DNA of 35,080 nt, from assembly GCA_003104975.1 (NCBI GenBank), contig PQAM01000011.1:1-35080 (forward strand), given 5' to 3'. Below the pieces are notes generated by a model. That model was not told the origin of the DNA. It saw only the letters and a list, made by a program, of their open reading frames with translations, and did not search any database. The stretch's first letter is position 1, and each line of letters starts with the position of its first letter. Below are positions 8,426 to 28,339 of this stretch, piece by piece. The DNA is from Candidatus Methylomirabilota bacterium (GTDB taxonomy: Bacteria > Methylomirabilota > Methylomirabilia > Methylomirabilales > Methylomirabilaceae). Both the position numbers and the translations under genes were made by a program.

Positions 8426-8520
8426 TTATTCGGCTCCTGTCTGGCGGCTATTGTAATCGAGTTTGGCTCGATCCGCTACCTGCTTGAGCTGTCCATGACA
8501 AAAATAGCTGCTTGAAACGC

Positions 8521-8578
8521 GTCATTGCGAGCGCAGAACGGTGAGATTGCCGCGCTCCCGTTGGTCGCTCGCAATGAC
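8521..8578. repeat. Short interspersed palindromic repeat, GTCATTGCGAGC family
   Basis: Starts GTCATTGCGAGC and ends GCTCGCAATGAC, with imperfect inverted symmetry between. Further copies lie at 27003-27112 and 28182-28304. It sits in the 297-bp gap between the divergent nucleoside hydrolase and M15-like peptidase genes, and is typical of MITE/REP-like dispersed repeats. Confidence 0.8.
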
Positions 8579-8722
8579 GGACACGTGAACGGGTTGCGCG
8601 ATCAGCCTCGATTCTTCTCCAACGTCGATTTTCCGGTTGACGGTCAGGCGGGTTATTTGGTACGGTGGACCGCGTTTCTCGGCACAACGCTTACTCGATC
8701 TGAAATCCATGGAGGTCAGGAA

Positions 8723-16676: not shown

Positions 16677-17600
16677 ATGGCCATCATTACCATTTCCCGG
16701 CAGATCGGCAGCGGCGGCGACGAGATCGCCGCCCGACTGGCCGCTGAACTCGGGTTCACGCTGGTCGACCATGCCCTGCTTGTCGAATTGCTGAAGGCGC
16801 AGCATCTCTCGCAGTCCGATGTCGAAGCGGTGGATGAAGAAGAGCGCAGCACGACATCGGCGCAATCGCCGGCAGATCAGGTATATGTTGATCTCTTGCC
16901 TGCGTTCATTACGAATCTCGCGACAGAAAAGGATCTGGTGGTGCTGGATTGCGGGGGTCAATGTGTCTTCCGAGGGTTCCCCGGCGCATTGCACGTCCGT
17001 GTTGTGGCCGCCGCGAAAGAGCGGGCCAGACGCCTGATGGACGAACGCGGTATCGATGAGCGCTCAGCGATGCGTCTGATTGAGGAGAGCGATGAGACCA
17101 GACGGCGCTTTATCCGGCATTACTACGGGGAAGATATCGACGCCGCCGTTCACTACGATCTGGTTATCAACACCGACCGCCTGAGTGTGGAGGCGGCAAT
17201 GCGTCTCATCAGGCCGGCGGTAGAGCCGGCCGACCTCGCGGGGAGGGGGCAGGACATCGGACACCGGCTTGAGACGGCCCGTCCGCTCCCGTTTGCGCAT
17301 CCCAGTGAAGCGGAGTTTGCGCGGGTCCTGGATTTCTATCAGATACGATGGGAGTATGAACCTCGGACATTTCCCCTCGCATGGGATGAGGCGGGCAATG
17401 CGACCGAAGCCTTCTCGCCGGACTTCTATCTGGTCGATTTCGACCTCTTTATTGAGCTGACCACGCTCAAGCAGAGCCTGGTCACGGAGAAGAATCGAAA
17501 GATCAGACGGTTTCGAGAGCTGTATCCGGCGGTCACGCTGAAGGTATTTTACGGGAGAGACTATCGGAGCTTACTTGCCAAATACGGCCTTGCAAAATAA
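16677..17600 (+). CDS. Cytidylate kinase-like protein fused to a C-terminal PD-(D/E)XK-like domain
   Basis: 307 residues from ATG 16677; an upstream in-frame start at 16587 would overlap citrate synthase and lacks family sequence. Residues 1-185 match the cytidylate-kinase-like family: ITISRQIGSGGDEIAARLAAELGF with a GSGG phosphate loop, DLVVLDCGGQCVF, RARRLMDERGI, RFIRHYYGED and YDLVINTDRLSVEAA. The last ~90 residues form a separate domain: FYQIRWEYEPRTFPL, SPDFYLVDFDLFIELTTLKQ, TEKNRKIRRFRELYP and FYGRDYRSLLAKYGL. The D...ELT...K layout suggests a restriction-endonuclease-like fold, but with Thr where the motif Lys would be, so it may bind nucleotides or nucleic acid rather than cut. The next gene, hpt, hints at nucleotide metabolism. 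True substrate unknown. Confidence 0.8.
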   Translation: MAIITISRQIGSGGDEIAARLAAELGFTLVDHALLVELLKAQHLSQSDVEAVDEEERSTTSAQSPADQVYVDLLPAFITNLATEKDLVVLDCGGQCVFRGFPGALHVRVVAAAKERARRLMDERGIDERSAMRLIEESDETRRRFIRHYYGEDIDAAVHYDLVINTDRLSVEAAMRLIRPAVEPADLAGRGQDIGHRLETARPLPFAHPSEAEFARVLDFYQIRWEYEPRTFPLAWDEAGNATEAFSPDFYLVDFDLFIELTTLKQSLVTEKNRKIRRFRELYPAVTLKVFYGRDYRSLLAKYGLAK

Positions 17601-17601
17601 A

Positions 17602-17778
17602 GTAGCTCCAAGTGACCCGTCAGCCTCCATGCTTTCCCAGGAACACACCCTTTCAGCTTCTCCTGGGTTACCGGGGATCTTTCCATCAGCTTACCTAGCC
17701 CGATGTGTTACCCTCGAACCCAGAACCGTCTGAAACACCCCGGTACTTGGTGGTGGCCTTCAGACCTCTTGGAGCTAC
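17602..17778. ncRNA. Structured 177-bp element with 11-bp terminal inverted repeats and pseudoknot-like pairing
   Basis: The ends GTAGCTCCAAG (17602-17612) and CTTGGAGCTAC (17768-17778) are perfect complements. Inside, CCCAGGA/TCCTGGG (17636-17642/17661-17667) forms a hairpin. TACCGGGG/CCCCGGTA (17669-17676/17738-17745) and GTCTGAA/TTCAGAC (17728-17734/17759-17765) cross each other, so they form either a pseudoknot or alternative folds. No open reading frame runs through it. It may be a structured RNA, the non-coding end of a mobile element, or a MITE. The transcribed strand is unknown. Confidence 0.5.
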
Positions 17779-17852
17779 ACTAAATGTAGGACGAGCTCTC
17801 ATGGGTGTCAAGGGGTACAGATCAATTTTCTGTCACGTTCTCGGAGTGTGAG

Positions 17853-18407
17853 ATGGACCACGCGATGATTCAGGACCTTGCGGAGGTATTGATATCCGAA
17901 GAGGCGATTGCGCATCGCATCAGAGAACTCGGAGCCGCAATTTCGAGGGATTACGTGGGCAGAGAGTTGGTACTTGCCGGTGTGCTGAGGGGGGCCTCGT
18001 TCTTCCTGGCCGATCTGGCACGGGCCATATCCATTCCGCTTACTATCGATTTTATTTCTATTTCAAGCTATGGCCCGGCAACGAAAGCCTCCGGCGTCGT
18101 CGGCATCAGAAAAGACCTCGATGAAAGTATTAGCGGTCGGGACCTCCTGGTGGTGGAAGATATTGTAGACACCGGCCTCACCCTCAGTTACCTGCTGAAG
18201 ATCTTTCGGGCCCGTCAGCCGTCCAGTCTGCAGATCTGTACGTTCTTGGACCGAAAGGTGCGGCGTATTATTGACCTCCCCATTGCCTATCGGGGGTTTG
18301 AAATCCCTGAGCAGTTTATCGTCGGCTACGGCCTCGATTACAATCAACGCTACCGTAACCTTCCGTGCATCGGTGTTCTGAGGCCCGAACTGATGGCCGA
18401 GAGATGA
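17853..18407 (+). CDS. hpt: Hypoxanthine phosphoribosyltransferase
   Basis: 184 residues from ATG 17853, preceded by GGAGTGTGAG; a longer frame from GTG 17805 has no ribosome site. The type I phosphoribosyltransferase fold is clear: LVLAGVLRGASFFLADLAR, then the PRPP-binding loop LLVVEDIVDTGLTL around residues 98-111, and the C-terminal GYGLDYNQRYRNLPCIGVL typical of bacterial Hpt. It makes IMP (and GMP) from hypoxanthine (guanine) and PRPP in purine salvage. The upstream neighbour is a kinase-like fusion protein, separated by a 177-bp structured element that would lie in the leader of this gene if they are co-transcribed. Confidence 0.93.
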   Translation: MDHAMIQDLAEVLISEEAIAHRIRELGAAISRDYVGRELVLAGVLRGASFFLADLARAISIPLTIDFISISSYGPATKASGVVGIRKDLDESISGRDLLVVEDIVDTGLTLSYLLKIFRARQPSSLQICTFLDRKVRRIIDLPIAYRGFEIPEQFIVGYGLDYNQRYRNLPCIGVLRPELMAER

Positions 18408-18730: not shown

Positions 18731-18821
18731 GTTGCCCGAATCGGGCAACATCGGCTATTAAGCAACGAAGTTGCTTGTATTGACTTATTGCCCATAACGT
18801 GCAACAATGCGTTATGGGCAA
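18731..18821 (+). promoter_or_regulatory. Three stacked palindromes forming a probable operator/promoter, the last one containing the start codon
   Basis: Palindrome 1: GTTGCCCGA-A-TCGGGCAAC (18731-18749). Palindrome 2: AAGCAAC-GAA-GTTGCTT (18760-18776). Palindrome 3: TTGCCCATAACG, ten-base loop, CGTTATGGGCAA (18788-18821). All share the GCAAC/GTTGC core. The ATG of the following gene (18814) lies in the right arm of palindrome 3. Possible promoters are TTGCCC-18-TATTAA (18732-18761) and TTGACT (18780-18785). AbiEi-type antitoxins are known to bind inverted repeats at their own promoter, so autorepression is a reasonable inference. Confidence 0.65.
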
Positions 18822-19848
18822 CAGCAAGATTCAAGAGACCCTACAGCAACTTATCGACCGTCTTCCTCCCGGGTGGCGGCTTATCCAAGGTGATGAAGTC
18901 TCCCCAGAGGGGGTCGACGTTCTCGCTACCGTCGCGGCCCCAGATGGCTCCTCCATTAAACTGCTTATTGAGTACAAGGACCGCGTTGAGCCTCGGAGCG
19001 TGCCGCTCCTCTTCTCACGGGCGCAGGGCACGCTCCCCGGCATCCGGGTTCTCGCCGTACCGTTCCTGACATCAGGGGTACGGGAACGCTTGACTGAAGC
19101 CGGAATTGGCTATGTGGACCTGACCGGGAACGTGCGGCTCGTGGCCGAGCGACCGGGGCTGTTCATTGCCACGGCAGGACTCGATAAGAACCCCTTTCCT
19201 GAACGCCGAGGCGCGGCCTCCTTCAAGGGCGCCAAGGCCGGCCGCCTGGTCCGAGCGCTCTGCGATTTTGTGCCCCCGCTGGGCGTTCGGGATCTGGCGA
19301 ACCGCACCTGCGTCGATCCGGGCTATGTGTCCCGCCTCCTGCGGCTCGCCGACGCAGAGGCCCTCCTCACTCGCGCCCCTCGAGGCCCGGTGCTCACCGT
19401 CGATTGGCGGCGCCTACTTCGACGCTGGGTCGAGGACTATACGCCCTTTGACCGGCGGCGTCTGCGGGCCTTCCTCGCGCCGCGAGGGCTGGCTGCTATA
19501 GAGGAACGGCTTGGCCGGTCGTCGCTTCGCTATGCGATCACGGGGGCGGTGGCGGCGGCGAAGCTGACGCCGGTCGCCATACCGCGGCATCTGACGTGCT
19601 ACGTCGACGATCCCGATACCGCAAGCGAGGTCTTGGGTCTCAGACAGGCCGAGATCGGTGCGAATGTCCTGCTCGTGTCGCCCTTCGATCCGGTGGTCTA
19701 CGAACGCGGACAGGAATGGCAAGGGCTCAGGCTCGCAGCCGTAAGCCAGATCTGCGCCGATCTGCTCACGAGCCCTGGGCGCGGCCCCGCTGAGGCCGAG
19801 GCGTTCATGAGCTGGATGGCGGATCACGAGCATGAGTGGCGTGTCTGA
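18814..19848 (+). CDS. AbiEi-like transcriptional regulator/antitoxin with N-terminal nuclease-like fold
   Basis: 344 residues from ATG 18814 (a GTG at 18799 is in frame but falls in the loop of a palindrome). The N-terminal ~120 residues have a PD-(D/E)XK-like pattern: Asp in EGVDVLATV and then LLIEYKDR, where E-Y-K fits ExK, followed by VRERLTEAGIGYVDLTGNVRL. Residues ~145-185 form a winged helix (VRALCDFVPPLGVRDLANRT, DPGYVSRLLRLADAEALL). The remainder resembles the AbiEi-type C-terminal region of type IV toxin-antitoxin antitoxins. Palindromes at its start suggest autoregulation. The downstream nucleotidyltransferase gene overlaps its end by 17 bases, the expected order for antitoxin then toxin. 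Whether the nuclease-like domain is active is unknown. Confidence 0.7.
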   Translation: MGNSKIQETLQQLIDRLPPGWRLIQGDEVSPEGVDVLATVAAPDGSSIKLLIEYKDRVEPRSVPLLFSRAQGTLPGIRVLAVPFLTSGVRERLTEAGIGYVDLTGNVRLVAERPGLFIATAGLDKNPFPERRGAASFKGAKAGRLVRALCDFVPPLGVRDLANRTCVDPGYVSRLLRLADAEALLTRAPRGPVLTVDWRRLLRRWVEDYTPFDRRRLRAFLAPRGLAAIEERLGRSSLRYAITGAVAAAKLTPVAIPRHLTCYVDDPDTASEVLGLRQAEIGANVLLVSPFDPVVYERGQEWQGLRLAAVSQICADLLTSPGRGPAEAEAFMSWMADHEHEWRV

Positions 19849-20671
19849 TCCCGGCTACGTCGCGGCTCGCCGGGTACTTCTCGACGCCCTCGAGGCCCTC
19901 GGTGAGTAGCGAGCTGCCGTGGTGCTCGTGGGGGCCCAGGCGATTTACCTCCACGCCGGCGAAGGCGACCTTGCCGTGGCGCCCTATACTCTCGACGCGG
20001 ACCTGGCGCTGGTCCCGACTCAGCTTCGCGCCCTCCCCGACCTGACCGAGTGTCTTGAGGCGGCAGGCTTTCGACGGACTGAGCATATCGGGATCTGGGC
20101 GAAGACGGTCGAGGTTCAGGGGAGGGTCGGTGAGGTGATGGTCGATTTCCTCGTGCCGGACCCGCTGGGTGGGCCTGGAAGGCGCGCCGCGCGGCTGGAG
20201 GGACACGGCGCCCGGCTGGCGCGCAAGGCCCGGGGACTGGAGGCGGCCGTGGTCGATCGCACCAATCTATCTGTGGGGGCGTTCGAACCTGGGGACCTAC
20301 GCTGCTTCGAAATCGCCGTAGCTGGACCCGCCGCGCTCTTGGTGGCAAAACTTCACAAGCTGGCAGAGCGCGGTGAGGGTGAGCGAGTCCGCGACAAGGA
20401 CGCTCTCGACGTGCTCCGGCTGCTACGGAGGGTGGCCACCGAGCGACTTGCCGAGCGACTCACCGCCCTCCGCGCAGATCCGATGGCCGGCGAGGTGACC
20501 GAGGCCGCTATCGGCTGTCTACGCACGATGTTCGGGGACCATCGAGCCCTCGGGTCGCAGATGGCAGCCCGCGCAGCCGCCCCGTTTGAAGACCCCGAGA
20601 CGATTGCCGCTTCCTGCGCGGCCCTTACCCGGGATCTCCTCGCGGCGCTGGAAGCGGCCAGGGCACCGTAG
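19832..20671 (+). pseudogene. AbiEii-like nucleotidyltransferase (toxin-like), interrupted by an in-frame amber codon
   Basis: Reading from ATG 19832, which overlaps the upstream gene, the frame codes MSGVSDPGYVAARRVLLDAL, then meets TAG at 19907-19909 (codon 26), and continues without another stop to 20671. The continuation has the nucleotidyltransferase signature VLVGAQAIYLHAGEGD and TLDADLALVP. Further on come AGPAALLVAKLHKLAERGEG and RDKDALDVLRLLRR, which resemble the helical part of AbiEii-type toxins. Glutamine (CAG) at the stop position would restore an unbroken 279-residue protein. A shorter product could start at GTG 19919, losing 29 residues before the active site. So it may be a pseudogene, a re-initiated shorter toxin, or a sequencing error. 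Confidence 0.7.
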
Positions 20672-27002: not shown

Positions 27003-27112
27003 GTCATTGCGAGCACCCGAAGGGTGCGCGGCAATCTCACCGTTCTGTCCTCGCGCGCTTGAAGAACCGGGGGCAAAGAACGGTTGGATTGCTTCGCTGC
27101 GCTCGCAATGAC
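27003..27112. repeat. Interspersed repeat, GTCATTGCGAGC family
   Basis: Begins GTCATTGCGAGCACCCGAAG and ends GCTCGCAATGAC, about 110 bp with imperfect inverted halves. It shares GGCAATCTCACCGTTCT with the copies at 8521 and 28182. It lies between the peroxidase and SCO genes, in a likely operon. Confidence 0.8.
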
Positions 27113-27256: not shown

Positions 27257-28339
27257 GTCGGTTCTCTGTGCGCCTTGACGGGCGGCATCATGCGCCGCCA
27301 GATAGTCGAGCAGATCGCTCACCTGCTCGTGGGTCAGCCCTACGTTGGGCATCGGGAAGCTGGGGTACTTCGCGGCAAGCTCCGTTGCGATGGGATCGCC
27401 GTCCGCCCGCAGCCGGTCTGGGGCCAGCAGATAGCGGGCCAGCCAGTCGCGCTCCCGGCGGCTCGTCACGCCTGCCAGATCGGGCCCCATGCCGCTGCCC
27501 TTGCCCAGGGTGTGGCAGATGGCGCACTGATTCCGGAACACCAACTGTCCATTCAGCAGCAGCCGCTGCTCCACCGTGATCTCCCGTTTCGGGGCGTCCG
27601 CAAAGCTCTTTGCCGGTCGCCCGGCATAATACCTGGCAGGGTCCAGCATCCTGCCGATTTCGCCGACCATCAGGTCGATGTTGCCGGTCAGCGTCAGCCG
27701 CATCCACTGGCCCTTTGCCCCGTCGCCGACCCGAACGAAATTGGTATGACTCTCCTTCTCGCCCCGCTCGCCGAACTTGTAGCGGACCTGATCGATAGCG
27801 TCCCGCGTGCCGGTTAAAAACAGCCAGCCAGGCCCGACCCGGTACCGTTCGGCATACTTCTTCAGGACCTCGGGGCTGTCATGCTCCGGGTCCAACGTGA
27901 TGGAGTACATGAAGATATCCTGGCCCACGCGTGATCCCAGCCGCTTTTGCACCTGCAGCAGCTTCGCCGTCGCCAGCGGGCAGGCCTTGTCACAAGTGGC
28001 ATAGATGAAGTTGATCAGGACCTTCTTGTCCTTGATCAGGTCATCGTAAAGCTGAACCGTCTGCCCTTCATGGGTCACCAGGGACACGTTGGGGAAATAG
28101 CCCGCCCCCCAGCGCGAGCCCTGCGGCGCAGCCGAGGCGGCGCCGGATGACCATAGAATCAGCAAGACCATAACCAAGCTCGTCATTGCGAGCGACCGAA
28201 GGGAGCGCGGCAATCCCACCGTTCTTGCACTGTGAGATTGCTTCGTCGCCTCCGGCTCCTCGCAATGACAATAAGGGGCGGTCGCTACGCTCCCTCGCAA
28301 TGACGTAGGCTGAGGATGTTCGCCGCAATGTCGTCTCAT
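27215..28339 (-). CDS. SCO1/SenC copper chaperone fused to cytochrome c domain, exported
   Basis: 374 residues from ATG 28339, preceded by GGAG; the frame is open to 28405, and an ATG at 28186 is the other option. The thioredoxin-like SCO domain shows INFIYATCDKACPL with Cys at ~116 and 120, and SHTNF with the conserved His at ~198, which together bind copper. A linker leads to a cytochrome c domain with CAICH (~272-276), GMGPDLAG and a likely distal Met in SFPMPN. SCO proteins load copper into CuA or other copper enzymes, so the upstream multicopper oxidase is the obvious client. A dispersed repeat (28182-28304) lies between the start and the hydrophobic signal (SLVMVLLILWSSGAASA), and the C-terminal SPAPSPARGEGK is also repeat-encoded. 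Confidence 0.88.
   Translation of the reverse strand: MRRHCGEHPQPTSLRGSVATAPYCHCEEPEATKQSHSARTVGLPRSLRSLAMTSLVMVLLILWSSGAASAAPQGSRWGAGYFPNVSLVTHEGQTVQLYDDLIKDKKVLINFIYATCDKACPLATAKLLQVQKRLGSRVGQDIFMYSITLDPEHDSPEVLKKYAERYRVGPGWLFLTGTRDAIDQVRYKFGERGEKESHTNFVRVGDGAKGQWMRLTLTGNIDLMVGEIGRMLDPARYYAGRPAKSFADAPKREITVEQRLLLNGQLVFRNQCAICHTLGKGSGMGPDLAGVTSRRERDWLARYLLAPDRLRADGDPIATELAAKYPSFPMPNVGLTHEQVSDLLDYLAAHDAARQGAQRTDSSPAPSPARGEGK
28182..28304. repeat. Interspersed repeat, GTCATTGCGAGC family, inside the 5' part of the SCO gene
   Basis: GTCATTGCGAGC starts at 28182. Inverse termini CTCGCAATGAC occur twice, ending at 28269 and 28304, so it looks like a unit plus an extra half. It is read in the SCO frame without a stop. 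Confidence 0.8.

What the first reader, a model, noticed from the sequence alone, without database searches (positions are those of the whole stretch)
17602..17778. Pseudoknot-like 177-bp structured element with perfect terminal inverted repeats between a kinase fusion gene and hpt
Four long complementary pairs can be read directly: terminal 11 bp, 7 bp, 8 bp and 7 bp. Two of them cross, giving H-type pseudoknot topology or mutually exclusive folds. The segment has no open frame. Candidates are a leader RNA for hpt, the non-coding end of a mobile element (IS110 bridge RNA, HEARO/omega RNA, retron-like), or a MITE. None is proven and I could not match it to a known consensus.
Basis: partly seen in the sequence, partly recalled or inferred. 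Interest (0 to 1): 0.65.

Follow-up and report, generated by a model that had tools for sequence, protein, structure and literature searches.

The report
New small-RNA gene family in Methylomirabilis
The stretch is the gene for a rod-shaped small RNA of about 180 nucleotides, read from the strand opposite to its neighbours, belonging to a previously undescribed RNA family of methane-oxidising Methylomirabilis bacteria and their relatives; its function is not yet known.

Summary
The 177-bp element with perfect 11-bp ends is real, single copy in this genome, and conserved. It is an RNA gene on the MINUS strand, not a + strand hpt leader or a mobile element. A near-consensus sigma-70 promoter (TTGACA-N17-TAtATT) sits at a fixed distance upstream of the minus-strand 5' end, and a T-rich run follows its 3' end. 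The RNA folds as an unbranched rod (-81 kcal/mol, z about -5) with covariation in ten homologues (0/500 shuffles reach it). I verified at least 34 copies in 22 genomes of one order of Methylomirabilota, up to four per genome. They share the promoter layout and the terminal arms CCCCAAGAGGUC/GGUCACUUGGGG but have divergent interiors. In four families a copy lies between the same two genes, always antiparallel. Nothing in Rfam 15 matches. The canonical 6S RNA lies elsewhere; no Hfq or Ro60 gene was found, while CsrA is present. Best reading: an independently transcribed stable sRNA family, probably a protein-bound ribonucleoprotein recognised through its conserved end helix. The gene and structure are well supported; transcription and function are inferred.

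The parts
17806..17811 (-). -35 hexamer TTGACA of the small-RNA promoter
   Evidence: TTGAC invariant in the aligned members; 17 nt to the -10 in this genome.
17783..17788 (-). -10 hexamer TACATT (TATATT or TATATA in most homologues)
   Evidence: Conserved position in the Methylomirabilis homologues and in other families.
17602..17778 (-). small-RNA gene, about 180 nt, unbranched rod
   Evidence: CM R1 match 17601-17778 minus, 197 bits (this sequence is in the model); fold z -5.0; covariation.
17768..17778 (-). 5' arm of terminal helix, GUAGCUCCAAG (family consensus CCCCAAGAGGU continues inward)
   Evidence: Pairs with 17602-17612; compensatory changes across families.
17602..17612 (-). 3' arm of terminal helix, CUUGGAGCUAC (family consensus GGUCACUUGGGGC)
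   Evidence: As above.
17762..17767 (-). conserved A (A-A mismatch with 17613) and inner helix with tandem G-U/U-G pairs; opposite strand 17613-17618
   Evidence: G-U and U-G pairs kept in 13 of 14 members of the family alignment.
17744..17747 (-). AGUA of a putative loop-E (sarcin-ricin type) internal loop in most Methylomirabilis copies; partner GAA at 17634-17636
   Evidence: Invariant in the nine sequences of A1, absent in the divergent L040. The motif identity is inferred from sequence.
17594..17601 (-). T-rich run after the terminal helix (putative 3' end), overlapping the kinase stop codon
   Evidence: T-rich stretch after the 3' arm in most members printed.
16677..17600 (+). upstream neighbour: Cytidylate_kin2 domain fused to an unassigned C-terminal domain
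   Evidence: Pfam PF13189, 2e-39; syntenic in relatives.
17853..18407 (+). downstream neighbour hpt (phosphoribosyltransferase)
   Evidence: Pfam PF00156, 6.6e-24; syntenic in relatives.

Best explanation
The element is an independent small-RNA gene on the minus strand. RNA polymerase starts from a sigma-70-type promoter at 17811-17783 and makes an RNA of about 180 nt from about 17778 to about 17600. The RNA folds into a long unbranched rod closed by pairing of its own 5' and 3' ends; the closing helix followed by a T-rich run probably marks the 3' end. It belongs to an undescribed RNA family confined, as far as tested, to one order of Methylomirabilota, with one to four paralogues per genome. 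Because the end helix (with its A-A mismatch and tandem G-U pairs) is conserved in sequence while the interiors have diverged, the most likely mode of action is a stable ribonucleoprotein in which one protein recognises the end helix, with the interior as scaffold, decoy or specificity part. Shown: conservation, strand-biased fold, covariation, promoter layout, family membership, synteny. Inferred: transcription itself, the 3' end, protein binding. My confidence is about 0.93 for the minus-strand RNA gene and family, about 0.4 for the protein-handle mechanism; the number given is for the statement as a whole.
For: Single copy here; conserved in nine of 14 other same-genus genomes by blastn and a tenth by covariance model. 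Minus strand folds better than plus (most homologues). Covariation of the nested rod in the genus, in the terminal helix of 14 family members, and in nine pairs of a paralogue group. Promoter TTGAC-N17/18-TATA-like at constant distance. The promoter-plus-5'-arm pattern gives 38 matches in 35 genomes of the order against 4 for the reversed-pattern control, and 6 against 1 in 60 others. Both arms present in the copies read out. Same kinase-RNA-hpt order in four families, RNA antiparallel; paralogues beside BrkB/YihY-like, transhydrogenase/FKBP-like, SDR-like and TPR-like genes (names by eye), so not tied to hpt. No Rfam family.
Against: No expression data could be consulted, so transcription is inferred. 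No binding protein identified. Four genomes of the genus show no copy; in one of them (G009) a deletion removed the locus together with most of the kinase and hpt genes, so it is dispensable there. Interiors of different paralogue groups cannot be aligned with confidence, so common descent of all groups rests on promoter layout and arms.
Confidence: 0.6

Rival explanations
1. A divergent second 6S-type RNA that mimics an open promoter and sequesters RNA polymerase.
For: Length, rod shape, strong promoter and paired ends resemble 6S; a large internal loop follows the terminal helices in the Methylomirabilis fold.
Against: A canonical 6S scoring 82 bits lies elsewhere in the same genome; no 6S match for the element at permissive threshold; [quoted passage not shown]
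Confidence: 0.12
2. A CsrA-sequestering sponge RNA.
For: Three CsrA genes in the genome; one paralogue group in another family has 10-11 GGA motifs against about 7.5 expected.
Against: GGA is not enriched in the Methylomirabilis copies (5 against 5.9 expected here) and not specially exposed; the fold is a rod rather than GGA hairpin loops.
Confidence: 0.06
3. A trans-acting antisense regulator that pairs with mRNAs.
For: Several paralogues with different interiors could have different targets.
Against: No Hfq found in this genome; long paired rods leave few unpaired seed regions; the conserved arms are paired to each other.
Confidence: 0.12
4. A plus-strand leader or riboswitch of hpt.
For: It lies just upstream of hpt.
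Against: Promoter and best fold are on the opposite strand; paralogues lie beside unrelated genes.
Confidence: 0.02
5. Inverted-repeat mobile element (MITE or transposon end).
For: Perfect terminal inverted repeats; several copies in some relatives.
Against: Single copy here, kept at one locus in four families, promoter outside the repeat at constant distance, interiors differ between copies of one genome.
Confidence: 0.02

Closest known systems
6S RNA (Rfam RF00013)
   Same: Rod-shaped RNA of about 180 nt closed by its own ends, with its own promoter.
   Different: Distinct gene from the genome's canonical 6S; no RF00013 match; conservation concentrated in the end helix; several paralogues per genome in relatives.
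Bacterial Y RNAs (Ro60/Rsr partners)
   Same: Conserved end helix with variable interior, the layout of an RNA held by a protein near its ends (general knowledge).
   Different: No TROVE (Ro60) domain protein found in this genome; no Rfam Y RNA match.
CsrB/RsmZ-type CsrA sponges
   Same: Small non-coding RNA in a genome that has CsrA.
   Different: No enrichment or exposure of GGA motifs in the Methylomirabilis copies; rod rather than hairpin array.

Membership tests
6S RNA (RF00013) | Scores with the 6S covariance model | tested here: not met
   Not listed for the element at E up to 10 nor for seven loci holding relatives at E up to 5; the genome's own 6S scores 82 bits elsewhere.
[quoted passage not shown]
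   A large internal loop exists in the genus fold but lies near the end helix; another paralogue group has only small internal loops.
6S RNA (RF00013) | Binds RNA polymerase and templates product RNA | not testable with these tools
   Needs biochemistry.
Bacterial Y RNA | Genome encodes Ro60/Rsr (TROVE domain) | tested here: not met
   No PF05731 match in the window's genome (a control genome was detected).
CsrA sponge RNA | CsrA present in the genome | tested here: met
   Three matches above cut-off.
CsrA sponge RNA | Many exposed GGA motifs | tested here: not met
   Not enriched in this genus, mostly half or fully paired.
MITE / insertion-sequence end | Dispersed near-identical copies in a genome | tested here: not met
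   One copy in the own genome.
Riboswitch / leader of hpt | Same strand as, and upstream of, the regulated gene | tested here: not met
   Promoter and best fold on the opposite strand.
Any Rfam 15 family | Match at the gathering score | tested here: not met
   Only a tRNA in the whole window; none overlapping relatives' elements.

The most novel reading that the evidence does not exclude
These RNAs are a new class of bacterial ribonucleoprotein RNA: one to several rods per cell, all held by one unknown protein through a common end helix, in the nitrite-dependent methane oxidisers and their relatives.
Probability: 0.3. Interest if true: 0.75.

Novelty: new variant of a known kind. Interest (0 to 1): 0.55.

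Why it matters
A multi-copy, strongly promoted, covarying RNA family with no Rfam match, in bacteria without pure cultures, gives a concrete handle on regulation in nitrite-dependent methane oxidisers. The shared end helix predicts a shared binding protein that can be fished out of an enrichment culture, and the deletion in one species shows that the locus can be lost, so comparison of species with and without it is possible.

Tried and rejected
Phage and plasmid records: no blastn match. Rfam at gathering and permissive thresholds: only chance matches to human lncRNA models in the element. Exact-pattern scan of genome contigs: the non-Methylomirabilota matches fail the covariance model. Viral-contig pattern matches fail R1 or R2. 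Candidates in the sister order (f7) have the promoter-like pattern but, where read out, no 3' arm, so they are taken as chance. A first two-gap pattern had too short a gap and missed most members. R1 also scores the opposite strand of true members at 21-36 bits because a rod is nearly self-complementary, so matches of 20-35 bits in other families were accepted only after promoter and both arms were read. R2 with the strict filters used for many genomes lost known members. Taxon names: record titles of several loci read Candidatus Methylomirabilis or Methylomirabilota; that G006 (2,752,854 bases, one contig) is M. oxyfera is from memory of the genome size, not tested. Literature searches found no report of this RNA in the papers held; subscription papers are not held.

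Full report
Observation. The inverted repeat 17602-17612/17768-17778 is perfect and extends imperfectly to 28 nt, listed third among inverted repeats of the window within 250 nt. Both strands fold better than dinucleotide shuffles, the minus strand more so: -81.0 kcal/mol, z -5.0, against -61.2, z -3.5. No open frame is conserved on either strand among ten homologues. Rfam has no family for it.

Homologues. The element is single copy in its own genome. blastn finds it once in each of nine of the fourteen other same-genus genomes and in none of 45 more distant ones. A covariance model of nine sequences (R1) adds G002 and points to divergent copies in two further families of the order. Record titles of matching loci read Candidatus Methylomirabilis or Methylomirabilota.

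Strand and promoter. Upstream of the minus-strand 5' end every Methylomirabilis homologue in the alignment carries TTGACA, 17 nt, then a TATAWT-like hexamer a few bases before the arm. The divergent members keep the same layout: 36-39 nt from TTGAC to the arm in all sixteen measured. A T-rich stretch follows the 3' arm in most members. In this window the T-run overlaps the stop codon of the kinase gene.

Structure. RNAalifold gives an unbranched rod. On ten sequences 95.7% of cells pair, 7 pairs have changes on both sides, and none of 500 shuffles reaches the covariation score. The terminal helix of 14 family members pairs in 98.4% of cells with compensatory changes at three pairs. A paralogue group in another family gives its own 51-pair rod with nine pairs changed on both sides. 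The ten-sequence alignment is fitted to the model and shuffles do not remove relatedness, so the slid controls matter too: they give 28-58% paired for the genus. Caveat: most terminal-helix pairs never vary within the genus, so there the evidence is conservation rather than covariation.

Family. The pattern TTGAC-N(16-19)-YA-N(11-18)-CCRAGRGGTY gives 38 matches in 35 genomes of the order against 4 for the reversed control; outside the order 6 against 1. Reading out the loci gives both arms in at least 34 copies from 22 genomes: one in each of 11 Methylomirabilis genomes, 18 copies in seven genomes of family f3 (up to four per genome), three in f4 and two in f6. L048, L049 and L062 are further possible members. 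Lengths are mostly 140-200 nt, shorter (about 80-125 nt) in L105 and the possible members. Arms are near-invariant; interiors differ between paralogue groups.

Context. Kinase-fusion gene, RNA, hpt is the order in f1, f3, f4 and f6, the RNA antiparallel to both genes. In G026 and G023 a second copy lies on the other side of hpt. Other paralogues lie next to different genes, with the position shared between related genomes where both were read. In G009 a deletion joins the start of the kinase gene to the end of hpt and removes the RNA. The RNA therefore appears to be inherited vertically, is not a cis element of hpt, and is dispensable in at least one species.

Mechanism. A sequence-conserved end helix with variable interior suggests recognition of the end by a common partner. 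No Ro60 and no Hfq was found in the own genome; CsrA is present in three copies but GGA motifs are not enriched or exposed in this genus. Canonical 6S is a separate gene. I therefore favour an RNP RNA with an unknown end-helix-binding protein; this step is inference.

Novelty. A new RNA family, with no relative found in Rfam 15 or in the papers held; the general kind (stable structured bacterial sRNA) is known.

Noticed in passing
window 8520-8579, 27003-27112, 28181-28305: GTCATTGCGAGCG inverted-repeat (REP-like) elements occur at least three times in the window.
   Followed up: no
L123 (G009), about 1460-1620: Clean deletion fusing the first codons of the kinase-fusion gene to about the last 35 codons of hpt, removing the RNA locus.
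   Followed up: partly
window 17300-17600: The kinase-like protein carries a C-terminal domain of about 100 residues without a Pfam match; in f3 and f4 only this part is recognised next to the RNA.
   Followed up: no
window 18799-20671: Adjacent genes resembling an AbiEi-type antitoxin and a nucleotidyltransferase, possibly a type IV toxin-antitoxin pair (the second is just below the curated cut-off).
   Followed up: no
G000:C17:73830-76937: Three CsrA genes within about 3 kb.
   Followed up: no
L105 2865-2990 (G019): A family copy that is an almost perfect long hairpin, lacking the A-A mismatch.
   Followed up: partly
L062 1014-1128 (G034, family f5): Possible further relative with arms GCCCUCAAGAGCUU/AAGUCGCUUGAGGGC.
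   Followed up: partly
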